This document shows positions 9,781-55,571 of a stretch of DNA of 64,000 bases, in pieces. The stretch covers positions 124,001 through 188,000 of IMG/VR virus record IMGVR_UViG_3300047548_000772; one strand, 5' to 3'. The notes below the pieces were generated by a model. That model was not told the origin of the DNA. It was given only the letters and a program-made list of their open reading frames with translations, and ran no database searches. Position 1 is the first letter of the stretch. Each line of letters opens with the position of its first letter. Made by a program: the position numbers and the translations under genes. The DNA is from a virus.

Positions 9781-9999
9781 ATGATACTACGTGAGTTTTT
9801 TGAACAACAACCCGAAGGTTACCAAGATTTAGCCGATGATAACAGTCAGCCTCAACTTGGCGATACCCGCAAGTCTAAACTCACGTTGCGTCAAATTAAC
9901 AAATTACGCCGCATGAATGATCTGCGTACTGTAGAATATAAACAAAATCTCAAAGATATTAAACGTCAGTACGCACCACCTGCTGCACCGCCGATGTAA
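9781..9999 (+). CDS. Small prohead core-like protein (gp67-like position)
   Basis: 72 residues, highly charged: an acidic start, a basic KSKLTLRQINKLRRM centre and a Pro/Ala-rich end. It sits directly after the portal and before the core/protease/scaffold genes, where T4 carries gene 67. The N-terminus (MILREFFEQQ) resembles the capsid-targeting peptides of T4 internal proteins. Sequence identity to gp67 is not demonstrable by eye, so the assignment rests on size, charge and position. Confidence 0.5.
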   Translation: MILREFFEQQPEGYQDLADDNSQPQLGDTRKSKLTLRQINKLRRMNDLRTVEYKQNLKDIKRQYAPPAAPPM

Positions 10000-10086: not shown

Positions 10087-10117
10087 TTTACAGAGCCTTT
10101 ACTTGGAGATTTCTCTT

Positions 10118-10972
10118 ATGAACAAATTTGAACAATTAATTGAATTCGTCATTAATGACGAAGAACAAAAAGCTCGTGATCTATTCCACGACATCGTTGT
10201 TGAAAAGTCTCGCTCAATTTACGAAAGCCTAATGGCTGAAGAAGAAGAGCTAGACGAAGCCAAAGATGAAGAAGAATTAGACGAGTCTGAAGAAGAATTA
10301 GACGAATCAGCTGAAGAAGCTGAAGAACTAGATGAAAATCTAGATGGAATGTGCGGCGCTATCGGCGGCGACCAGTCAGACGATCTTATCGACGATGTTG
10401 AAGCCGAAGAAGAAGGCATGAGCTTCGAAGGTGAAGATGATCTAGAAGCTGAGTTTGCTGACGAAGAAGGCGGCGAAGATTTAGAAGATCGTGTTGTTGA
10501 TCTTGAGGACAAGCTAGACGAACTAATGGCAGAATTTGAATCGCTATTAGGCGGCGACGAAGCTGGTGCTGAAGGCGGCGACGACGGTGAAGAATTAGAT
10601 TTTGACAGCGAAGAAGAAGTTGACGCAGAAGACGGTGAAGAAACAGAAATGGACGACACTGAATTTGAAGTTGCCGAAGCACTTGAAGAAGCTGTTACAC
10701 TACAAAAAGCCCCAGCTCCAACAACATCAGAAGAAAGCTTCGTAAACAAGAAGTCAATCAATGATGACAACAGCGGTGCTGCTGGTATGGAAGCAAAGCC
10801 AGTTAAAACATCTGGTGCACAAGAAAACGGTCGTACTGCCCCTAAAGCAGGCGAACTAATTGGTAAGGTACAAAACAGCGTTGGCGGCGATAAGAAATTA
10901 TCACCAGCTACAAAGCCAACTCTAAGCCAAGCCAGTGGTGTAAACACCAAAACTCCTTTCCCAAAGAACTAA
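10118..10972 (+). CDS. Acidic prohead core protein (gp68-like)
   Basis: 284 residues. The start at 10118 (MNKFEQLIEFVINDEEQ) follows GGAG at 10105-10108 and is preferred over an upstream TTG at 10103. The N-terminal 45 residues (EQKARDLFHDIVVEKSRSIYESL) look like a conserved T4-like core-protein module. Residues about 45-200 are extremely Glu/Asp-rich with repeated EELDE units. The C-terminus is Lys/Thr-rich and low complexity. It lies between portal and protease, where T4 has small core genes 67 and 68. The acidic stretch suits a scaffold or internal core protein removed or digested at maturation. Confidence 0.6.
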   Translation: MNKFEQLIEFVINDEEQKARDLFHDIVVEKSRSIYESLMAEEEELDEAKDEEELDESEEELDESAEEAEELDENLDGMCGAIGGDQSDDLIDDVEAEEEGMSFEGEDDLEAEFADEEGGEDLEDRVVDLEDKLDELMAEFESLLGGDEAGAEGGDDGEELDFDSEEEVDAEDGEETEMDDTEFEVAEALEEAVTLQKAPAPTTSEESFVNKKSINDDNSGAAGMEAKPVKTSGAQENGRTAPKAGELIGKVQNSVGGDKKLSPATKPTLSQASGVNTKTPFPKN

Positions 10973-10981
10973 TCAAGTAAA

Positions 10982-11608
10982 ATGGCTCGTTACTTACAAG
11001 AGAACCTTACTTTCGACGCTGCTCGTATCGTTGTAGAAAGCCACGGCGAGGGTAAGGACCTCTATATGAAGGGCATTTGCATCCAAGGTGGTGTCAAGAA
11101 TGCCAACGAGCGTGTGTATCCGGTTAGTGAAATTGAATCTGCAGTTCAAACATTAAACGAACAGATTCATGGTGGATACTCAGTTCTAGGGGAAGTAGAT
11201 CACCCAGATGATTTAAAAATTAATCTAGACCGCGTTAGCCATATGATCACAGAAATGTGGATGGATGGTCCTAACGGTTTTGGTAAATTAAAGATTCTTC
11301 CAACACCAATGGGTCAACTAGTGAAAACTATGTTGGAAAGTGGTGTAAAATTAGGAGTTTCAAGTCGCGGTAGCGGAAACGTTAACGAGGCTAACGGACA
11401 CGTCAGTGACTTTGAAATTGTCACTGTTGATGTAGTTGCCCAACCCAGTGCTCCAAATGCTTATCCTAAAGCAATTTACGAAGGCCTAATGAACATGCGT
11501 TACGGCCATCGTGTTATGGAAATGGCAAAAGATGCTGGACAGGACAACAAGGTACAGAGATATTTGAAGAGCGAAGTAATGAAGCTCATCAAGGATCTCA
11601 AGATCTAA
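10982..11608 (+). CDS. 21: Prohead maturation protease gp21
   Basis: 208 residues, matching T4 gp21 (212). It is a herpesvirus/HK97-type serine protease: GEVDHPD supplies His74, and LGVSSRGSG supplies the Ser (Ser127 or Ser128). It digests the scaffold and trims capsid precursors, typically after Glu in (L/I)xE sites. It sits in the conserved 20-core-21-22-23 order, with gp22 starting 10 nt after its stop. Confidence 0.93.
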   Translation: MARYLQENLTFDAARIVVESHGEGKDLYMKGICIQGGVKNANERVYPVSEIESAVQTLNEQIHGGYSVLGEVDHPDDLKINLDRVSHMITEMWMDGPNGFGKLKILPTPMGQLVKTMLESGVKLGVSSRGSGNVNEANGHVSDFEIVTVDVVAQPSAPNAYPKAIYEGLMNMRYGHRVMEMAKDAGQDNKVQRYLKSEVMKLIKDLKI

Positions 11609-11618
11609 GGAGAACGGC

Positions 11619-12713
11619 ATGCTAGATGCTATTAAACCATTACTAGATAGCGGCTTGATCACAGAAGACGTAAGTCAAGAGCTAAATGAGGCTTGGGAAT
11701 CTAAGTTAAATGAAGCTCGTGAACAAGTTCGTGCAGAACTACGTGAAGAGTTTGCACAACGCTATGAGCATGATAAAACAGTGATGGTGGAAGCCCTAGA
11801 TCGCATGGTAACAGAAGGTCTTGCTGGCCAGTTAGAAGCAGTTGCAGCTGAAAAGAAGCAACTTGCCGAAGACCGTGTCAAGTTCCAGGTTAAGATGAAA
11901 GAAAATGCCCAGAAGTTTAACGACTTTATGGTTTCTAAATTAGCTGAAGAAATTGGCGAGCTACGCAAAGATCGCAAGGCACACAACGAATCAATCGACA
12001 AGCTCGAAAACTTTGTTGTTAAGGCTCTTGCTAGTGAAATCCGTGAGTTTGCAGAAGACAAGAAGGACATGGTAGCAACCAAGGTTCGTCTAGTTAAAGA
12101 AGCTCGTGGTCAACTAGAGGCTCTAAAGTCACGCTTCATCAAGGAGAGTGCCGCTAAAATGAGTCAATCTGTTAGCAAGCATCTAAAGGCTGAACTAAGC
12201 CAACTACATGAAGACATCAAAGTTGCTCGTGAGAACAATTTTGGTCGTCGTATCTTTGAAGCATTCGCAACAGAATTCAACGCTACTCACTTAAATGAGA
12301 ACGCTGTAGTTCGTAGCCTAAAGGCAGCGATTGCACAAAAAGATCAGCAGTTAGCTGAAGCCATCACACTCGGTAAGAAGGCTAAGACCCTTATCGAAAA
12401 CAAGGAACGCGAGATTCGTGTCATCAAAGAGTCAAACCTACGTCAGGCCACTCTAGATGAATTACTAGGCCCTCTAAATGATGAGAAGCGTAGTGTTATG
12501 TCGAATCTGCTCGAAAACGTTCAAACAGCCCGCTTAAAGAACGCTTTCGAAAAATATCTACCAGCAGTTTTAGCTGAGGGTTCAACAAAAGCCAAAAAGG
12601 TAATTGCTGAATCACGCACTGAAGTTACTGGCGATAAATCTGCAAAAGTTGTTGAGACAGAAGATACTAGCGAAAGCAATGTTATCGACCTAAAACGACT
12701 AGCAGGGCTTTAA
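11619..12713 (+). CDS. 22: Major prohead scaffold protein gp22
   Basis: 364 residues, almost wholly charged and helical. The opening MLDAIKPLLDSGLITEDV is typical of gp22 proteins, and long coiled-coil-forming Glu/Lys stretches follow. It forms the internal core around which gp23 assembles and is degraded by gp21. AAGGAGAA precedes the ATG. It lies between the protease and major capsid genes. Confidence 0.9.
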   Translation: MLDAIKPLLDSGLITEDVSQELNEAWESKLNEAREQVRAELREEFAQRYEHDKTVMVEALDRMVTEGLAGQLEAVAAEKKQLAEDRVKFQVKMKENAQKFNDFMVSKLAEEIGELRKDRKAHNESIDKLENFVVKALASEIREFAEDKKDMVATKVRLVKEARGQLEALKSRFIKESAAKMSQSVSKHLKAELSQLHEDIKVARENNFGRRIFEAFATEFNATHLNENAVVRSLKAAIAQKDQQLAEAITLGKKAKTLIENKEREIRVIKESNLRQATLDELLGPLNDEKRSVMSNLLENVQTARLKNAFEKYLPAVLAEGSTKAKKVIAESRTEVTGDKSAKVVETEDTSESNVIDLKRLAGL

Positions 12714-12735: not shown

Positions 12736-13941
12736 ATGTCACAAGAATTATTAGAGAGCCGTTGGGGTGAGACCAAGGAAGCCCTCCTAGAAGGTTTACA
12801 AGGTGCTCGTCGCAACACAATGAGTGCTGTTTTAGAAAACACTCGTAAGTACCTAAAAGAATCATCAGCTGGTACAACAGTTGCAGGTAACATCGCAACT
12901 CTAAACCGCGTTATTCTTCCAGTTATCCGTCGTGTAATGCCAACCGTTATTGCTAACGAACTAGTTGGTGTTCAGCCAATGACTGGTCCAGTTGGTCAGA
13001 TCCACACATTACGTGTTCGCTACGCTTCAACAATGACTGACACATCAGCTGCTCAGACATCGGTTCAAGCAGGTGAAGAAGCCCTAAGCCCATTCAAGAT
13101 TGCTCAGGCTTACTCATCAGGCGCTCGTGCTGCTGACAACGCTGCAACAACTCAAGATTACTACACTGGTGCTAACACCGCTGCCCTAGAAGGCAACGGC
13201 GGTCGTCAGATCAGCGTACAAATCCTAAAGCAAGCTGTTGAAGCTAAGTCACGTAAGCTACAAGCTCGTTGGACATTTGAAGCTGCTCAAGATGCTCAAT
13301 CAATGCACGGTATTGACATCGAAGCAGAAATCATGGCTGCACTAGCACAAGAAATCACAGCTGAAATCGATCAAGAGATCCTTCTAAGCCTACGTACTCT
13401 TGCTAGCACAGAGTTCACATACAACCAAGCTACAGTATCAGGTACTGCTACATTCGTTGGCGACGAACACGCTGCTCTAGCTGTTCTAGTTAACCGTGTT
13501 GCAAACCTAATTGCTCAGCGTACACGTCGTGGCGCTGGTAACTGGGCTGTTGTATCACCAGCTTCATTAACAGTTCTACAATCAGCAACGACCTCAGCTT
13601 TCGCTCGTACAACAGAAGGCACATTTGAAGCTCCAACAAACACCAAGTTTGTTGGTACATTAAATGGCGCAATGCGTGTATTCTGTGATAGCTACGCTAA
13701 CGACAGCATGCCTGTTCTAGTTGGCTACAAGGGTTCAAGCGAAACAGACGCAGCAGCGTTCTACTGCCCATATATTCCATTAATGAGCAGCGGCGTTGTT
13801 CTAGATCCATCAACATTCGAACCAGTCGTAAGCTTCATGACTCGTTACGGTTATGTTGAACTAACCAACACAGCTAGCAGCTTTGGTAACGCAGCCGATT
13901 ACGTCGGTGAAATTGCCGTTTCGAATCTATCATTTAGCTAA
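12736..13941 (+). CDS. 23: Major capsid protein gp23
   Basis: 401 residues, shorter than T4 gp23 (521) but with the family pattern: an N-terminal helical propeptide, NRVILPVIRRVMPTVIANELVGVQPMTGP, and C-terminal VVSFMTRYGYVELTN. A likely gp21 cleavage site is YLKE/SSAG after Glu42. The strong AAGGAG ribosome site at 12725 fits high expression. A terminator follows directly. No separate vertex gene (gp24) is seen in the window. Confidence 0.96.
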   Translation: MSQELLESRWGETKEALLEGLQGARRNTMSAVLENTRKYLKESSAGTTVAGNIATLNRVILPVIRRVMPTVIANELVGVQPMTGPVGQIHTLRVRYASTMTDTSAAQTSVQAGEEALSPFKIAQAYSSGARAADNAATTQDYYTGANTAALEGNGGRQISVQILKQAVEAKSRKLQARWTFEAAQDAQSMHGIDIEAEIMAALAQEITAEIDQEILLSLRTLASTEFTYNQATVSGTATFVGDEHAALAVLVNRVANLIAQRTRRGAGNWAVVSPASLTVLQSATTSAFARTTEGTFEAPTNTKFVGTLNGAMRVFCDSYANDSMPVLVGYKGSSETDAAAFYCPYIPLMSSGVVLDPSTFEPVVSFMTRYGYVELTNTASSFGNAADYVGEIAVSNLSFS

Positions 13942-44474: not shown

Positions 44475-44481
44475 ATAAATA
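44475..44481 (+). promoter_or_regulatory. Late promoter core ATAAATA, 5 nt before ATG
   Basis: GCGATAAATATTCGCATG: the core ends 5 nt before the ATG at 44487, with no Shine-Dalgarno sequence. The element itself is a near-palindrome. Confidence 0.6.
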
Positions 44482-44486
44482 TTCGC

Positions 44487-44975
44487 ATGACTAAGAAACT
44501 AGAAGAATTGTTTGATTTACCCCAAAACGACGATGATGTTGTGGATCCAGCACCTGATTTTGCTGGAGAAACAATACCCGATCTTACTACCACATTAGAT
44601 AGCCTTGATAAAATTGAGTCGGCATTGCCTGCGGTACGGGGCCTAGAAGCCAGCGACAGCGAAATGGATGCACTAGCCAAAAAAGCCAGTGACAGTTTTG
44701 ACGACCTAATGGACTTGGGCATGAACGTAGATAGCCGCTATGCTAGCGAAATTTTTGCTGTAGCCAGTTCAATGCTTGGACATGCTATTACAGCCAAGAC
44801 TGCTAAACTTAACAAAAAGTTAAAAATGATTGACTTACAACTTAAGAAAGCAAAATTAGATGCTGACCTTAATGATGGCGATGGTCCTACAAAAACAGGC
44901 ACGGGCGTGGTAATTGATCGCAACGAATTATTAGCAAAATTAGCAAACCGAGACCAGTCAAACAAGGCTGATTAG
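44487..44975 (+). CDS. 16: Terminase small subunit gp16-like
   Basis: 162 residues, equal to T4 gp16 (164). An acidic N-terminus opens with LEELFDLPQND. The central helical hairpin is DLGMNVDSRYASEIFAVASSMLGHAITAKTAKLNKKLKMIDLQLKKAKLD, and a short tail contains GTGVVIDRNELLAKLANR. The arrangement matches the ring-forming coiled-coil core of T4-like small terminases that regulate gp17. The large subunit lies 8 kb downstream rather than adjacent. The assignment rests on size, helical core and gene order. Confidence 0.7.
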   Translation: MTKKLEELFDLPQNDDDVVDPAPDFAGETIPDLTTTLDSLDKIESALPAVRGLEASDSEMDALAKKASDSFDDLMDLGMNVDSRYASEIFAVASSMLGHAITAKTAKLNKKLKMIDLQLKKAKLDADLNDGDGPTKTGTGVVIDRNELLAKLANRDQSNKAD

Positions 44976-44982
44976 GTAAATA
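44976..44982 (+). promoter_or_regulatory. Late promoter core variant GTAAATA
   Basis: GGTAAATATGCTATAG, 19 nt before the ATG at 45002. AGAGGAT serves as ribosome site. Confidence 0.35.
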
Positions 44983-45001
44983 TGCTATAGAGGATCCAAA
45001 T

Positions 45002-45604
45002 ATGAAAACTTTAGCCGAATACTTAGTAGAGTCGCGTCAAACCTACGATTACCGCATTAAATTCGCCGGTGATGTAGATGCAGACTTTCTAGCAAAATTC
45101 AAAAAGCAACTTGAGCAGTTTGACGTTATTAAAATGTCACAACCTAAGACTACTCCAGTTAAAAAAGAACTTCTCGACTTTCCGAAGTTTCCAAATGAAA
45201 GCGAAACATTCATCGATGTAAGTTTTAACTATCCAGCAATCCCGCCACAGATTGTACAAATGGTACAACTACTTGGCTTTGACCCAAATCGTGTGTTAAT
45301 GCAAGACCGTAAGTATGCTGAGAAACTTGATCAAGAACGTGATACACAAGAAAAAGAAAGCAAGAATCTTTTAACAGATACAAACTATCCTGCTCCTAAC
45401 AAAGAGCAACAAGAGCAAAGTGCAGACTACGGTGCTGACCCCTATGGTCATGCTGTGCTAAAGAACGCATATCGCAGCGACTTTACTGTTGCTGGCGGTA
45501 AGACACCAAAGGCTAAAACAACTAACGACTACCCAATGGGTGACACAAGTCCAGTTGGCACAAAGCAAAACAAGATCCCTACACCAAAGAGCTTTGCTCG
45601 CTAA
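45002..45604 (+). CDS. Probable head-associated protein with capsid-targeting-like N-terminus
   Basis: 200 residues. The first residues MKTLAEYLVES resemble the capsid-targeting peptides of T4 internal proteins (MKTYxEFIAEA) and include a gp21-type LVE/S site. The next 85 residues form a folded domain (YDYRIKFAGDVDADFLAKFKKQLEQFDVIKMSQPK, then FIDVSFNYPAIPPQIVQMVQLLGFDPNRVL). The C-terminal third is Lys/Pro/Asn-rich and disordered, ending TPKSFAR. Related proteins occur in aquatic T4-like phages. Role unknown; packaging in the head is an inference from the leader. Confidence 0.6.
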   Translation: MKTLAEYLVESRQTYDYRIKFAGDVDADFLAKFKKQLEQFDVIKMSQPKTTPVKKELLDFPKFPNESETFIDVSFNYPAIPPQIVQMVQLLGFDPNRVLMQDRKYAEKLDQERDTQEKESKNLLTDTNYPAPNKEQQEQSADYGADPYGHAVLKNAYRSDFTVAGGKTPKAKTTNDYPMGDTSPVGTKQNKIPTPKSFAR

Positions 45605-45614
45605 GGAATAGACT

Positions 45615-48560
45615 ATGAACAACATGTACAAAATTTTAGAATCGTTTAACAGCCTAACACCAGAGACAAAAGTAGTCGAGGCTAAAACCACAGATCCTGA
45701 ACTACAAAAAATCGCACACAACTATCCTCGCGAAGTTAAGTTACTAATTCAAACTGGCGATTTTGACAAGGATCTATATTCAGCATTGTTTGATTACTAC
45801 AACGGCCTAGGTGAAATGCCTTATGGCGTTGCCAAAGCACGTGACGGCGATCCTTATGAATGGATCTTCCAACGCTTTACCAACGACATGGGCCTAGATA
45901 GTCCACTAAGCAATGTTGGTCAAGATGCTGGCCTAGGTTTAGACAAGGCTATCCAAGGTGTTGAAGAAGAAATGGGCACATACGGTGCTATGGCCGGTCA
46001 AGGCATGGGCTATGGTAGCATTACCGAAGGCTCGGCAGACTTTTATCGAGAGTTGCGTGACCTTGTTGAAGGCAAAAAGTCAAAGCCTGACTTTTTAGAC
46101 GTCGACAAAGATGGCAACAAAAAAGAGCCTTTCAAGAAGGCAGTCAAGGACAAGCAAGTTGACGAATCCTTGACTAGTGTTGAATTAGACGAAGGTGTTA
46201 ATAGATTTACACCAAAAGATATTAAATCTGCAATTAATTATAAAAATGCTGCTGGTCCAATTTGGAAAGTAACGCCAAGTGGGTCAGTCAGAATCACCGC
46301 AATGAATGCAGATGTTACTGCGCTCAATAAGATTTTATCTCGTCCATTAGCAAGTCAAGAAGACTGGGATATGTTAAAAAAGCAAATGCGAGTAGAGATT
46401 TTGAAAAAAAATGCAGGAAGCGCAATTGCTGAAGCCAAGCCTGACTTCCTAGACGTTGACAAGGATGGCAACAAGAAAGAGCCTTTCAAGAAGGCTATTA
46501 AGGATAAAAAAGTTAATGAAATGGATTATGGTGGCGGCAGAAGTCCGCACGGCGGCCACAATCTTCCAAGAGACGCAGAAGATCAACCTGGACCACAGGT
46601 TACAGTAAATCCACAAAAAGCAAAAGATGCTAAAAAAGATATAGAGGATCAATTAACTAAAGCGTTTCAAAATCAACCAGTAAAGCAAAATGTTGGAGGC
46701 AAAAAAGTCAGCGAAGCAGCCGCCGAGAACCCATACCAACAACGTATCCTTGATGCTAATAAAGCAGACTTAGAAGAATTCTTAAAGACTGGTTACCTAG
46801 ATACAACTAGTGACTTGTACTATCAAATGTACGAATACTATGCTAACCAAATGGATCCAAAAGTTCGTCGTAATCAAGATGCACAGTATGATTTTATCAC
46901 TGGTAAGATCCGCGAAATTGCTGGCGTTAACGAAGCCCGCGGCGATGATTGGGATTTCAGCGACTTACCACCAGAGCCAACAACACGTAAGATTGCTGGC
47001 AAGCGTTACGGCGGTTCAGCACAAGTTGATGAACCAGAAGATGACGAAGATGATAGCAAGCCAGGTGTTAAGGCTGCTAAAAAGCGTGGTCGCCCAGCAG
47101 GCACCAAACGTGCTATTGGTGCCAAAGGCCCAACAGGCAAGAGCAAACTTCTTAAGAAGGGTGCTATCAAAGAGGGCGACGACGAAGGCGTTGACATGGT
47201 TAAGTTAGCCAAGGTTATTGCTTCGTGCACAAGCCCTGAGCAACTTGAAGTTGCTAAGAAGATGGCTAAAAACTTTTTAGGCAAGCACCGTGCATCGGGT
47301 GACGATTTTAGAGTTAGTGCATTTAAAAACGACATGGATCGTGAAAGATCAGTAAAGCGTGATCTTGGTGCTAAAGCCAAGAGCCTAAGTGCAGAACCAG
47401 TTGCTGAAAAGGCCCCCCCTGGCGCCAAAGCAGAACGTATGGTCAAGGGTATTAAGAAGTCATTGAGCAAAGACGGTCACCTAAGTGACAAGGACAAAGC
47501 AATTGCTTATGCTACCACATGGAAAGCACACAAGCAAGGCAAAGTTGAAGAAGAAGCCGGTGTTGAAGAAGAATCAACAGGCGACGAATCTAAAGAATCA
47601 CGCCAAGCAGCAAAAAGTATCTATCACATGCTTTATGATGCTAACGCCGCTGACTGGAAAGATCTAGGTTACACCCCAGTGGATGTTAGAAATTTAACTA
47701 AAGTAGCAGAGATGTTTAAAGTTGGTAAGCCCAAAGCAGCACGTCAACTAGCATTCAAAGCTGGCATTAGCGATTTAGTTGACGAAATACTCAAAGGCAA
47801 CTGGGTCGGTGCAGAGTTAGAAGAAGAATCAACAGGCGACTACTCTGCTAAAAAGGCACGTGCCGGTAAAGACATTGGCAAGCCAGGCAAGAACTTTGAA
47901 AAGATTGCTAAGTCAGCAGGTAAAAAGTATGGCAGCAAAGAACGTGGTGAAAAGGTTGCTGGTGCAGTATTAGCAAAACTACGTGGCAAGAACGAAAGCA
48001 AGGACGAAGAACAAGTTGAAGAAACAACTTGTGCCGGTTCAGTTGCTCCAAGTGTTGCTGCTCCTAAGAAAGCAAGTGCTGGTGGTTATCAGTTTGGCAA
48101 GGGTGTTTACGAAAGCATTAACAGCCAAGTAGAAAAAATGATTGTCGAGGGCATGAGCATCAATGTAAACGTCGACAGCAATGGTCAAAAGAGCATTAAC
48201 GTTAGTGCTACTGATGAAGATGCTGACAAGCTAGCAGAAATTTTAAAGATGGCTGGTATTGCTGGCGGCGGTGTTCCTGCAGTACAGGAAGCACAATGTT
48301 GCGAAGCATGTGGCACAAACCCATGCGAATGTTCAATGGTTGAAGAATCAAATGAACTAGCCAACGGCCCAGACGAAGAATACGCAGACACAGACATGCT
48401 AACAAACAAACTAGCCGGTGGTTTAAACAAACCTAAGACAACCGTTGCAGGTAATGGTCAAACTACTGTTCCTGTTACTGCTGTTCAAGTTAAGGAAAGC
48501 CAAGAAGTTGCAAAGATCGAAAACAGTCTTTGGAACTTGTTTAAAGCATTTAAGAAGTAA
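45615..48560 (+). CDS. Large low-complexity structural protein with AT-hook and Asp-loop repeats
   Basis: 981 residues. The start MYKILESFNSL includes a possible gp21 site (ILE/S). Two near-identical units KPDFLDVDKDGNKKEPFKKA (DNA about 46082 and 46437) contain a calcium-loop-like DVDKDGN. KKRGRPAGTK is an AT-hook-type DNA-binding motif. Other segments are PPGAKAERMVKGIKKSLSKDG, two EEESTGD linkers and a Cys-rich CCEACGTNPCEC near the end. Strongly charged, largely disordered with small folded islands. It resembles large structural proteins of aquatic T4-like phages. A DNA-associated internal head role is plausible but unproved. Confidence 0.6.
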   Translation: MNNMYKILESFNSLTPETKVVEAKTTDPELQKIAHNYPREVKLLIQTGDFDKDLYSALFDYYNGLGEMPYGVAKARDGDPYEWIFQRFTNDMGLDSPLSNVGQDAGLGLDKAIQGVEEEMGTYGAMAGQGMGYGSITEGSADFYRELRDLVEGKKSKPDFLDVDKDGNKKEPFKKAVKDKQVDESLTSVELDEGVNRFTPKDIKSAINYKNAAGPIWKVTPSGSVRITAMNADVTALNKILSRPLASQEDWDMLKKQMRVEILKKNAGSAIAEAKPDFLDVDKDGNKKEPFKKAIKDKKVNEMDYGGGRSPHGGHNLPRDAEDQPGPQVTVNPQKAKDAKKDIEDQLTKAFQNQPVKQNVGGKKVSEAAAENPYQQRILDANKADLEEFLKTGYLDTTSDLYYQMYEYYANQMDPKVRRNQDAQYDFITGKIREIAGVNEARGDDWDFSDLPPEPTTRKIAGKRYGGSAQVDEPEDDEDDSKPGVKAAKKRGRPAGTKRAIGAKGPTGKSKLLKKGAIKEGDDEGVDMVKLAKVIASCTSPEQLEVAKKMAKNFLGKHRASGDDFRVSAFKNDMDRERSVKRDLGAKAKSLSAEPVAEKAPPGAKAERMVKGIKKSLSKDGHLSDKDKAIAYATTWKAHKQGKVEEEAGVEEESTGDESKESRQAAKSIYHMLYDANAADWKDLGYTPVDVRNLTKVAEMFKVGKPKAARQLAFKAGISDLVDEILKGNWVGAELEEESTGDYSAKKARAGKDIGKPGKNFEKIAKSAGKKYGSKERGEKVAGAVLAKLRGKNESKDEEQVEETTCAGSVAPSVAAPKKASAGGYQFGKGVYESINSQVEKMIVEGMSINVNVDSNGQKSINVSATDEDADKLAEILKMAGIAGGGVPAVQEAQCCEACGTNPCECSMVEESNELANGPDEEYADTDMLTNKLAGGLNKPKTTVAGNGQTTVPVTAVQVKESQEVAKIENSLWNLFKAFKK
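46082..46510 (+). repeat. Duplicated DVDKDGN module flanking a variable segment
   Basis: Two 60-bp-scale copies (about 46082-46143 and 46437-46498), nearly identical in DNA and protein, bracket an AT-richer segment coding for a different domain. It looks like insertion by duplication of the flanking module. Confidence 0.6.
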
Positions 48561-48562
48561 TA

Positions 48563-48937
48563 ATGCGAGCAGCGGAGTTCATCACTGAGGCCAGCGAAGC
48601 CAAGGTATCTAAGAGATACCAGCAAGCAACTCGCGGTCTTAACTGGTTCAGTGATGGTGAACGCTGGAACACTGACTACGTTGGGTATCGTTTGGGAATG
48701 GCAGTGGCCTGCGCCGACGGTGTTAACCCCATTGAAATGGACGCCAAGAGTTGGATAGGCAAAGGTAAAACAGCACATCCTTATACTAAGGAAGAGCAGG
48801 CTATGCTTAAACAAGCATACGAAGTCGCCGGCGCATCTTATAAAGATCTAAACCATGGTGACATGGACAGTGAAGAACTTAAATCGACTAACAATGTTAG
48901 TCCAGTAAAACCGTTCAAAGGTTACCGACGTCGATGA
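48563..48937 (+). CDS. Candidate internal head protein A
   Basis: 124 residues. The N-terminus MRAAEFITEA matches the T4 capsid-targeting pattern MKTYxEFIAEA with a gp21 site ITE/A. The middle has WNTDYVGYRLGMAVACADGVNPIEMD; the end is SPVKPFKGYRRR. The next gene shares start and end motifs, so the two are paralogues or a fused family. It begins 2 nt after the 981-residue gene and overlaps its neighbour by ATGA. Related proteins are common in aquatic T4-like phages. Internal packaging is inferred from the leader. Confidence 0.6.
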   Translation: MRAAEFITEASEAKVSKRYQQATRGLNWFSDGERWNTDYVGYRLGMAVACADGVNPIEMDAKSWIGKGKTAHPYTKEEQAMLKQAYEVAGASYKDLNHGDMDSEELKSTNNVSPVKPFKGYRRR

Positions 48938-49320
48938 GAGCACGTGAGTTTATTGTAGAACAAAAAGATCTAGATCCAGAATACAAGGATCCTATGCAAT
49001 GGACTTTTACTATTCCTGGATTATCGGCAGCAGATCCTTATAACAATTATCGATTTGGTGTGGCTATTGCTCGAGCACGTAGCGATCAAGCCACAGATGA
49101 TGTTAATAATTTTCGCCCAGACTGGTCTCCAGAAACAGCATTTGGCGAACACGGTGTAGTTGTTGGAATGAACTCTGGTATTGAAAAAGTAATCGACCAG
49201 GCACTTAAAATGACCAACACACCTGGCGGCAAAAAACTAGTATCGAGTCCTAAAAGCGAAGAACCGTCGTTTGTTACATCAACAAGCCCAGTAAAACCGT
49301 TCAAAGGTTACCCACGTTAA
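48934..49320 (+). CDS. Candidate internal head protein B
   Basis: 128 residues. MRAREFIVEQ repeats the targeting-like leader (IVE/Q). The middle YNNYRFGVAIARARSD parallels VGYRLGMAVACADG of protein A. The end SPVKPFKGYPR is almost the same as in A. The conserved leader and tail around a variable middle fit proteins packaged with DNA and delivered to the host. Confidence 0.6.
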   Translation: MRAREFIVEQKDLDPEYKDPMQWTFTIPGLSAADPYNNYRFGVAIARARSDQATDDVNNFRPDWSPETAFGEHGVVVGMNSGIEKVIDQALKMTNTPGGKKLVSSPKSEEPSFVTSTSPVKPFKGYPR

Positions 49321-50606: not shown

Positions 50607-51041
50607 TTGAATCAACTTTTCTTAGCACTGGCGCTATTGCCATCAATGTCTTTTGCAGACAAAGCACCACAAGGTGTTGCATACCCTGCAGAAATTATTA
50701 AAGTTACTGATGGTGACACAGTGGTTATTGCTGCACCTTATTTGCCAGCACCACTAAAGCCACAATTGGCCGTTAGAATCTTCGGCGTTGATACACCCGA
50801 AAAAGGTTCTCGCGCTAAGTGCACAGCCGAAGATTCTAAAGGCCAAGCAGCATCAAAGTTTACTACTAAAGCAGTTAAACAATCAACTAAACAACAAGTT
50901 GTCATTTATGATTGGGATAAGTACGGTGGTCGTGTATTAGGTGATGTTATTTTAAATGGCCAAAGTCTACGAACAATGTTAATTCAAAACGGATATGCCC
51001 GAGAATACTATGGTGAAGCTAAAAAATCTTGGTGTCAGTAA
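50607..51041 (+). CDS. Exported thermonuclease (SNase family)
   Basis: 144 residues with a TTG start right after the previous stop. A signal peptide is clear: hydrophobic LFLALALLPSMSFA with cleavage after residue 17. The staphylococcal-nuclease core has KVTDGDTVV, VRIFGVDTPEKG (Arg57, Glu65) and YGGRVLGDVILNG (Arg109), retaining the three catalytic residues. The product should act in the periplasm or outside. Roles could include degrading nucleic acid during lysis or blocking superinfecting DNA. Confidence 0.82.
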   Translation: MNQLFLALALLPSMSFADKAPQGVAYPAEIIKVTDGDTVVIAAPYLPAPLKPQLAVRIFGVDTPEKGSRAKCTAEDSKGQAASKFTTKAVKQSTKQQVVIYDWDKYGGRVLGDVILNGQSLRTMLIQNGYAREYYGEAKKSWCQ

Positions 51042-54248: not shown

Positions 54249-55571
54249 ATGAGCACAAATAACAACGACGCACAACAACTATATGACCTACTGGTTGCCA
54301 AAGATTTTGAGCCAGAAACCCTAGATAAAACAGGTAAGCCTACTACAGATCCTGGCTCGTCTGATATCTTTAGTTTTGACTATAAAACTGCGAACCAGGA
54401 CTATGGTACTGTTGTTATCGTGCTTGACAACGAACAAAATCTTGAAGTTTACTTTGGCGACAACCTTGGCAAGACCATGGAAGAAGCAGACCGCAAAGAA
54501 TGGTATGACTTCTTGTACCAATTGCGTATGTTTGCCAAGCGCAATCTATTAACTTTTAGTCTAAATAATTTAGCACGCCTAAAGTTTAACATGAAGACCA
54601 TGGCTGCTCTTAAAGAAAGCCGTTTGTTCGAAGGCTATTACGGCACCCGTAAAACAAGTTACTCAGATCAACCTAAGAAAACCAAGATTGTTATCAAACA
54701 CAACCGCCCACTGGGTGAAGGCGAAGCACGTTTCCGTCATATTGAGAGTGTGTTTGTTGAAACATCTGAAGGTGAACGTTTTAAACTACCATTTACCAAA
54801 CTAGTTGGAGCCAAAGCAATGGCACGCCATGTAAGCGAAGGTGGCACACCATACGATGCTTTTGGCCAGCACATTGCCGAAATGGTCAACGAAATGAATA
54901 CTCTTAGCAGTTTCATTCGTGCTGCTAAACACAAGAACTACGACGGTGAGGCAGCGCACATGTTAGATTCGGCAGTACGCCATTATGCTGATCTAAAGCG
55001 TAAAGCCAAACACATGATTAGCCAACGCGGCTATCGTCAAACTCTAGATGAGTTTGATCCAGCAACAATTACGCCTGCCGACGAAGCAGTTGAAACCATT
55101 CGTAGTTTGTTTACACAACAAAGCCTCGATCCACGTATTGAAGGTGCACTACCTATTTTGGTTAAGATTCAAAAGACCGAACCCGCTGATGAATTTGAAT
55201 CATGGGCCGAACGTGTAACCGAAGGTACCTGGGCATTACCTGACAACAAGGAAGCACAAGTTGAGTTAAACAGATTAATGTCACAGCCTGTAGCAGTGGG
55301 TCCAGATGCAACCAACGCCACTGAATTGTTATATGATATTGTTGGCGATGACAAGTTATTTGATATCTTAGGTGCTCTTGCTGACCAAGATCCAGATGCT
55401 AATATTTGGGATAATGCAGCCGTTGTTAATCGATTAAAAGAACTAGGTATTGATACTAGCGTAATTACTAACCCACAACAAGCTGAACCTAATCTAACCG
55501 AACCAAACGAACCTCCAGTTATGGAATCTGATGAGTTAGACTTTATACGCACTTTAGCAAATATTAAATGA
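54249..55571 (+). CDS. Unknown protein, 440 residues
   Basis: Soluble alpha/beta protein. The first 100 residues (DIFSFDYKTANQDYGTVVIVLDNEQNLEVYFGDNLG) look folded. A helical middle (AFGQHIAEMVNEMNTLSSFIRAAKHKNYDGEAAHMLDSAVRHYADLKRKAKHMI) and an acidic Pro-rich tail follow. It resembles conserved T4-like aquatic phage proteins near terminase. Translationally coupled to the next gene by ATGA. The late promoter argues for a morphogenesis or virion role. Confidence 0.6.
   Translation: MSTNNNDAQQLYDLLVAKDFEPETLDKTGKPTTDPGSSDIFSFDYKTANQDYGTVVIVLDNEQNLEVYFGDNLGKTMEEADRKEWYDFLYQLRMFAKRNLLTFSLNNLARLKFNMKTMAALKESRLFEGYYGTRKTSYSDQPKKTKIVIKHNRPLGEGEARFRHIESVFVETSEGERFKLPFTKLVGAKAMARHVSEGGTPYDAFGQHIAEMVNEMNTLSSFIRAAKHKNYDGEAAHMLDSAVRHYADLKRKAKHMISQRGYRQTLDEFDPATITPADEAVETIRSLFTQQSLDPRIEGALPILVKIQKTEPADEFESWAERVTEGTWALPDNKEAQVELNRLMSQPVAVGPDATNATELLYDIVGDDKLFDILGALADQDPDANIWDNAAVVNRLKELGIDTSVITNPQQAEPNLTEPNEPPVMESDELDFIRTLANIK

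What the first reader, a model, noticed from the sequence alone, without database searches (positions are those of the whole stretch)
45002..49320. Capsid-targeting-like leaders mark a set of candidate internal head proteins
Several unknown proteins begin with a peptide like the T4 internal-protein targeting sequence (MKTYxEFIAEA): MKTLAEYLVES (45002), MRAAEFITEA (48563), MRAREFIVEQ (48934), and more loosely MYKILES (45615) and MILREFFEQ (9781). All but the last contain an (I/L)xE site expected for gp21. The two at 48563 and 48934 also share the end SPVKPFKGY. Proteins loaded into the head this way in T4 are injected and act on the host, so these are candidate delivered effectors.
Basis: partly seen in the sequence, partly recalled or inferred. 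Interest (0 to 1): 0.65.

Follow-up and report, generated by a model that had tools for sequence, protein, structure and literature searches.

The report
Phage head-targeting tag on cargo proteins
Three genes in this giant-phage genome begin with a short, almost unchanging peptide that looks like the address tag phage T4 uses to load proteins into its head, and in related phages the same tag sits on many unrelated enzymes that look like weapons to be injected into the host.

Summary
The leaders at 45002, 48563 and 48934 are real. In relatives they are almost invariant, with a free residue exactly where a T4 gp21-type site ([ILV]xE) allows one. The 45002 leader repeats all four determinants of the T4 capsid-targeting sequence (positions 4, 7, 8, 10) in register. 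The two loose cases (MYKILES, MILREFFEQ) are not conserved as such leaders. The phage encodes a gp21-type protease, and its scaffold and the 981-aa protein at 45615 are loaded with such sites.

The strongest evidence lies outside the window. In related jumbo-phage records, MRAxEF[ILV]xE heads about 20 mutually unrelated groups of proteins: GH19/LysM hydrolases, GNAT acetyltransferases, an amidoligase, ParB-like and ART-like domains. In one lineage an ART-like domain sits between the leader and the 128-aa protein, with the junction at the predicted cut. Two leader-bearing families have homologues detected by mass spectrometry in PA5oct virions.

So a transferable head-targeting tag is well supported. 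They are conserved and syntenic; two are paralogues, and they look like standing parts of the head. The effector-like cargo sits in relatives. Cleavage, packaging and injection are inferred, not shown.

The parts
44475..44483 (+). ATAAATATT, T4-late-promoter-like element 12 nt before the first start codon of the block (44487-49320)
44487..44975 (+). 162-aa protein, probable small terminase (TerS); no leader; first gene of the block
   Evidence: phrog_445 E=0.012, phrog_16202 E=2e-16; syntenic in relatives
45002..45604 (+). 200-aa protein with T4-register leader; N-terminal ferredoxin-like (ribosomal S6-like) domain, residues about 15-102; homologue of PA5oct EST35_0202, detected in virions
45002..45031 (+). 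leader MKTLAEYLVE; predicted cut after E10 (45029-45031)
   Evidence: F4/Y7/L8/E10 93/100/100/100% conserved in 57 sequences; T4 determinants from PMC9026906
45615..48560 (+). 981-aa modular protein; 15 gp21-like [ILV]xE[AGS] sites against 3.3 expected, several directly before repeated modules; own leader not conserved
48563..48937 (+). 124-aa protein with MRAxEF leader; paralogue of the next gene
48563..48589 (+). leader MRAAEFITE; predicted cut after E9
48899..48925 (+). shared C-terminal SPVKPFKGY
48934..49320 (+). 128-aa protein with MRAREF leader; ATGA overlap with the preceding gene
48934..48960 (+). leader MRAREFIVE; predicted cut after E9; in L162 an ART-like domain is inserted at exactly this junction
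49285..49311 (+). shared C-terminal SPVKPFKGY
9781..9999 (+).
10103..10972 (+). acidic core protein, gp67-like by position and composition (TTG as listed; ATG MNKFEQ further in)
10982..11608 (+). gp21-type prohead protease (Peptidase_S77); its own N-terminus MARYLxE is invariant
   Evidence: Pfam E=2e-26; phrog_207 E=3e-59
11619..12713 (+). gp22-like scaffold by position; 10 [ILV]xE[AGS] sites against 2.2 expected
12736..13941 (+). major capsid protein gp23; conserved [ILV]xE sites at 7, 19, 34 and 42 in its N-terminal region
   Evidence: phrog_138 E=5e-100; 67% identity to PA5oct MCP

Best explanation
The first 9-10 residues of the products of 45002, 48563 and 48934 are head-targeting propeptides of the T4 capsid-targeting-sequence kind. 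The proteins are made late, the leader (a predicted short helix) binds the prohead core, the S77 protease cuts after the Glu of [ILV]xE, and the mature bodies stay in the head with the DNA. The same tag, MRAxEF[ILV]xE, has been put on many unrelated proteins in this clade of jumbo T4-like phages. It works as a general loading tag: the three window proteins are its conserved standing clients, while the variable enzyme-like clients of relatives are the likely delivered effectors. Shown here: conservation, register, protease gene, reuse on unrelated proteins, insertion at the cut junction. Inferred: core binding, cleavage, residence in the head, injection.
For: Near-invariant leader with a free P2 residue in three families, not produced by selection. 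Register equals the T4 determinants: 4 and 7 targeting, 8 and 10 processing (PMC9026906). S77 protease present; conserved [ILV]xE sites in scaffold, MCP and the protease's own N-terminus. 45 leader matches in 15 relatives' records against 0 for the reversed pattern. 213 distinct leader-bearing ORFs fall into 20 unrelated clusters once the leader is removed, with GH19, LysM, GNAT, ParB_N, amidoligase, DUF6267, DUF6321 and DUF6934 domains. ART-like insertion between leader and 128-aa body, alignment resuming at residue 9, in L162. PA5oct virion MS: leader type M-x-[AILFV]-x-[ED]-hydrophobic in 10/93 detected against 5/239 undetected proteins, P=0.0016; with a cut site 6/93 against 1/239, P=0.0023 (two of five patterns tried). 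Both cargo families with PA5oct homologues hit MS-detected proteins, EST35_0205 and EST35_0349.
Against: No virion data for this phage or any MRAxEF phage. The PA5oct and Phosso homologues of 45002 keep F4 and Y7 but lack E10, so cleavage is not universal. MRAxEF is one residue shorter than the T4 leader and has no aromatic at position 4. Cargo bodies other than the 981-aa family show no excess of internal sites (44 against 40.8). The AlphaFold model of the 124-aa protein is poor (pLDDT 65). PA5oct 'ESI-MS/MS' marks are the depositors' and do not tell head from tail.
Confidence: 0.74

Rival explanations
1. One reading: the three window proteins themselves are effectors loaded in the head, injected and acting on the host.
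For: Leaders as in T4 IPs; the same leader heads enzyme-like proteins in relatives.
Against: Conserved like head genes (54-69% mean identity, gp4 71%), fixed synteny between TerS-like and TerL genes, paralogues, no enzyme domain. T4 IPs are poorly conserved (PMC9026906).
Confidence: 0.2
2. The tag addresses another virion compartment, such as the tail tube or baseplate, as effectors of contractile injection systems are loaded by N-terminal signals.
For: The block lies just after tail-tube genes; no virion location is known.
Against: Residue pattern and register match the gp21/CTS rules; tail sheath and tube proteins have no excess of sites.
Confidence: 0.1
3. The leader is an N-terminal helix spread by homology or recombination of gene starts, without targeting function.
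For: AlphaFold predicts a helix at residues 4-10 in both models; many leader genes share GNAT or ParB-like domains and recombine.
Against: About 20 unrelated clusters; synonymous codons differ at R2, A3, E5, F6 and E9; the position before E is free while E is fixed; association with virion proteins in PA5oct.
Confidence: 0.08
4. Chance matches picked out by eye.
For: The loose motif is not enriched genome-wide, and two of the five examples fail.
Against: Strict patterns 1 and 2 against 0.1 and 0.0 expected; invariance in 55-76 homologues; 45 against 0 and at least 120 against 13.
Confidence: 0.02

Closest known systems
T4 capsid targeting sequence of IPI, IPII, IPIII and Alt
   Same: Short N-terminal peptide ending in [IL]xE, shared by otherwise unrelated proteins, in a phage with an S77 protease. 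45002 has F4/Y7/L8/E10 in the T4 register. An ART-like protein is among the tagged proteins in relatives, as Alt is in T4.
   Different: Main consensus MRAxEF[ILV]xE is one residue shorter, with R2-A3 fixed. It is spread over about 20 groups including wall hydrolases and acetyltransferases. The window's clients are conserved, not variable. Cleavage and packaging not shown.
SPN3US and phiKZ ejection proteins with prohead-protease propeptides
   Same: Giant phages whose heads hold many proteins cut after Glu by a gp21-like protease (PMC9026906, PMC7411985).
   Different: Those belong to a different jumbo-phage group; no homology was found or sought here.
Pseudomonas phage PA5oct (Arenbergviridae)
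   Same: Same gene order TerS-like, 200-aa protein, long structural protein; MCP 67% identical; virion MS supports EST35_0150, 0202, 0203, 0205 and 0349.
   Different: No MRAxEF[ILV]xE leaders (0 of 332 proteins tested); no detectable 124/128-aa homologues; its leaders are of the MKIxDI[IL]xE type.

Membership tests
T4-type capsid targeting sequence | N-terminal peptide of about 7-19 residues with targeting residues at 4 and 7 and processing residues at 8 and 10 | tested here: met
   45002 family F4/Y7/L8/E10 at 93/100/100/100%. 48563/48934 families F6/[ILV]7/E9, shifted by one and without an aromatic at 4.
T4-type capsid targeting sequence | gp21-type protease encoded in the same genome | tested here: met
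   Peptidase_S77 E=2e-26 at 10982-11608
T4-type capsid targeting sequence | Leader shared by proteins whose mature parts are unrelated | tested here: met
   20 clusters without detectable similarity after leader removal
T4-type capsid targeting sequence | Leader removed after Glu in the mature virion | not testable with these tools
   No virion peptides held
T4-type capsid targeting sequence | Tagged proteins are in the virion head | tested here: inconclusive
   PA5oct homologues of the 45002 protein and of two cargo families carry virion MS marks, but head versus tail is not resolved
T4 internal proteins IPI-III | Small, basic, poorly conserved, dispensable, injected | tested here: not met
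   Mature pI 7.7, 9.0 and 5.8; 54-69% mean identity and fixed synteny. Dispensability and injection not testable
T4 internal proteins IPI-III | Sequence homology to known internal head proteins | tested here: inconclusive
   Only phrog_2667 (internal head protein) E=0.083 and phrog_14802 E=0.004, both over the N-terminus of the 45002 protein
T4 Alt-like injected ADP-ribosyltransferase (L162 fusion) | ADP-ribosyltransferase domain | tested here: inconclusive
   DUF3990 E=0.0016, below the curated cut-off; no PDB match of note

The most novel reading that the evidence does not exclude
A whole clade of uncultivated jumbo T4-like phages uses one short N-terminal tag to load an open-ended, recombining set of enzymes (ART-like, acetyltransferases, wall hydrolases, amidoligase and others) into the head for injection, so the injected repertoire of such a phage can be read from its sequence by searching for MRAxEF[ILV]xE.
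Probability: 0.5. Interest if true: 0.8.

Novelty: new variant of a known kind. Interest (0 to 1): 0.64.

Why it matters
Internal head proteins of phages are hard to recognise because their bodies are unrelated. A sequence tag with a measurable false-positive rate (0 against 45 in whole records; 13 against at least 120 in IMG/VR) would let injected proteins be predicted in uncultivated giant phages, including new anti-defence or takeover enzymes. It also separates the conserved tagged proteins, probably part of head building, from the variable tagged ones, probably delivered. The natural insertion of an ART-like domain at the leader junction suggests that new cargo can be tagged by simple recombination.

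Tried and rejected
The loose motif ([hydrophobic][ILVF]xE in the first 12 residues) is useless: no enrichment in the record or in PA5oct (P=0.54). MYKILES and MILREFFEQ were rejected as such leaders. Function from fold failed for 48563: low-confidence model, not searched. 45002 gives only a generic ferredoxin-like match to ribosomal S6 (E=5e-4), too common a fold to name a function. Pfam gives nothing for the leader proteins of the locus. The 128-aa profile found no relatives in GTDB genomes, so no host clue. Internal sites are not enriched in the cargo bodies, so a general 'polyprotein cargo' idea was dropped, keeping it only for the 981-aa family. Pfam names below the curated cut-off (DUF3990, kinase-like) are not claimed. 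Leader-bearing contigs: all five records over 130 kb carry the S77 protease and an MCP 84-88% identical to the window's, but none of the 17 shorter ones does; they may be fragments, so the tie of tag to protease rests on the long records.

Full report
WHAT THE WINDOW IS. The window is bases 124001-188000 of a 192,074-base IMG/VR virus record. It carries the T4-type head set in order: portal 8006, a 72-aa protein 9781, an acidic protein 10103, Peptidase_S77 protease 10982 (Pfam E=2e-26), a gp22-like scaffold 11619, and major capsid protein 12736. The capsid protein is 67% identical to that of Pseudomonas jumbo phage PA5oct. The finding lies in a second late block: tail tubes, gp4-like head closure (44039), a TerS-like protein (44487), then 45002, 45615, 48563 and 48934. 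An ATAAATATT element lies 12 nt before the start of 44487.

THE OBSERVATION. All five peptides are there, but MYKILES starts at the fourth codon of the 45615 ORF. The loose motif is not above chance in the record. The strict leaders occur nowhere else in six frames of 192 kb, with 0.1 and 0.0 expected in shuffles. The decisive evidence is conservation. In 76, 55 and 57 homologues the leaders read MRAxEF[IVL]xE, MRAREF[IVL]xEQ and MKxFxxYLxES, with E at 100% and the residue before it free. The 45002 leader has the T4 determinants (4, 7 targeting; 8, 10 processing; PMC9026906) in register. I checked that the alignments did not select for the leader: 97/99, 80/82 and 54/56 start at residue 1, and the rest are mostly GTG starts. 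For 45615 and 9781 the claimed site is not conserved.

THE PROTEASE SIDE. If gp21 cuts after [ILV]xE, its known T4 substrates should be rich in such sites. [ILV]xE[AGS] counts against shuffles: scaffold 10 against 2.2, gp67-like 6 against 2.4, protease 3 against 0.7, the 981-aa protein 15 against 3.3, and the 440-aa protein at 54249 6 against 1.3. Tail sheath, tubes and TerL are not enriched. In 51 homologues of the 981-aa protein the mean is 5.2 against 1.9. Several of its sites stand just before repeated modules: LVE|GKKSKPDFLDVDKDG, AIAE|AKPDFLDVDKDG, IVE|GMSINVNVD. The MCP and the protease have fully conserved [ILV]xE sites, including the protease's own N-terminus MARYLxE.

THE TAG IS TRANSFERABLE. 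Searching 15 relatives' whole records by DNA pattern gave 45 MRAxEF matches against 0 for the reversed pattern, and 21 T4-register matches against 1. Many MRAxEF matches lie far from this block. Their ORFs are in large part unrelated to each other: a LysM/GH19 hydrolase, GNAT acetyltransferases, an amidoligase, a DUF6321 basic protein, tiny basic proteins of 60-67 aa. Together 213 distinct ORFs form 20 clusters once the leader is removed; one of these is the 124/128-aa family itself. These ORFs were chosen by the leader, so their shared leader is no evidence; their number against controls and their mutual unrelatedness are. In L162 an ART-like domain (weak DUF3990 match) sits between leader and 128-aa body. 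The body aligns from residue 9 on at 67% identity, so the insert lies at the predicted cut. Relatives also carry, between the 981-aa and 124-aa genes, a variable protein with leader MK[ST][LF]x[DE]Y[LIM]xE. It has a basic C-terminal domain (phrog_7595) preceded in nearly all by a [ILMV][DG]EA site.

LINK TO VIRIONS. PA5oct has depositor-marked virion MS data. The 45002 homologue EST35_0202 is marked. Among 93 marked and 239 unmarked proteins, starts of the type M-x-[AILFV]-x-[ED]-hydrophobic are 10 against 5 (P=0.0016), and with an [ILVF]xE site 6 against 1 (P=0.0023). Five patterns were tried, so corrected values are about 0.01. The only PA5oct proteins similar to tagged cargo outside the 124/128-aa cluster, EST35_0205 and EST35_0349, are both marked. 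In PA5oct and Phosso the 45002 homologue keeps F4 and Y7 but has lost E10: targeting residues kept, processing residue lost. PMC9026906 reports that these functions are separable in T4.

WHAT THE THREE WINDOW PROTEINS ARE. 48563 and 48934 are full-length paralogues (29% identity, E=4e-7; profile probability 99%) with an ATGA overlap. Mean identity across 75 relatives is 54% (124 aa), 69% (128 aa), 56% (200 aa), gp4 71%, TerS-like 59%. The block is syntenic. That is how standing head parts behave; T4 internal proteins are poorly conserved. I therefore hold that these three are conserved internal head proteins with an assembly or DNA-organising role, and that delivered effectors are the variable tagged proteins of relatives. 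This record may be incomplete, so such genes of this phage may be missing from view.

WHAT IS SHOWN AND WHAT IS NOT. Shown: sequence, conservation, protease gene, reuse, insertion at the junction, association with PA5oct virion proteins. Inferred: binding to the core, cleavage, location in the head, injection, any action on the host.

Noticed in passing
window 44475, 49338 (+) and further sites before 54249, 60931 (+), 52625, 34672 (-); relatives' loci: ATAAATA[TC], like the T4 late promoter, precedes ORF start codons at two preferred distances: 165 hits at 11-14 nt from motif start, about 6 at 15-23, a second mode at 24-33 (492 distinct instances, orthologues included). All 10 short-range cases in the own record lie at 12-14. 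This suggests a class of leaderless late mRNAs beside a Shine-Dalgarno class.
   Followed up: partly
45615-48560: 981-aa modular protein with two copies of KPDFLDVDKDGNKKEPFKKA (EF-hand-like DxDxDG) and modules shared with cyanophage proteins; 15 gp21-like sites, possibly a core protein cut into pieces.
   Followed up: partly
54249-55571: 440-aa acidic protein (phrog_13484, virion structural protein) with 6 [ILV]xE[AGS] sites against 1.3 expected, possibly another prohead-protease substrate.
   Followed up: no
L005, L098, L102, L147 and others, between the 981-aa and 124-aa homologues: Variable protein with T4-register leader and a highly conserved basic C-terminal domain ...KKSNPARRKSFRARHNCDNPGPRxKARYWSCRAW (phrog_7595), preceded in nearly all by a [ILMV][DG]EA site; not found in the window's record.
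   Followed up: partly
L334:1615-2901, L317:1558-2487: Tagged proteins with a GQGTRWCTAAT motif, homologous to PA5oct EST35_0205 (virion MS); no Pfam family.
   Followed up: no
50607-51041: Staphylococcal-nuclease-like protein (Pfam E=8e-13) with a hydrophobic, signal-peptide-like start in a phage genome.
   Followed up: no
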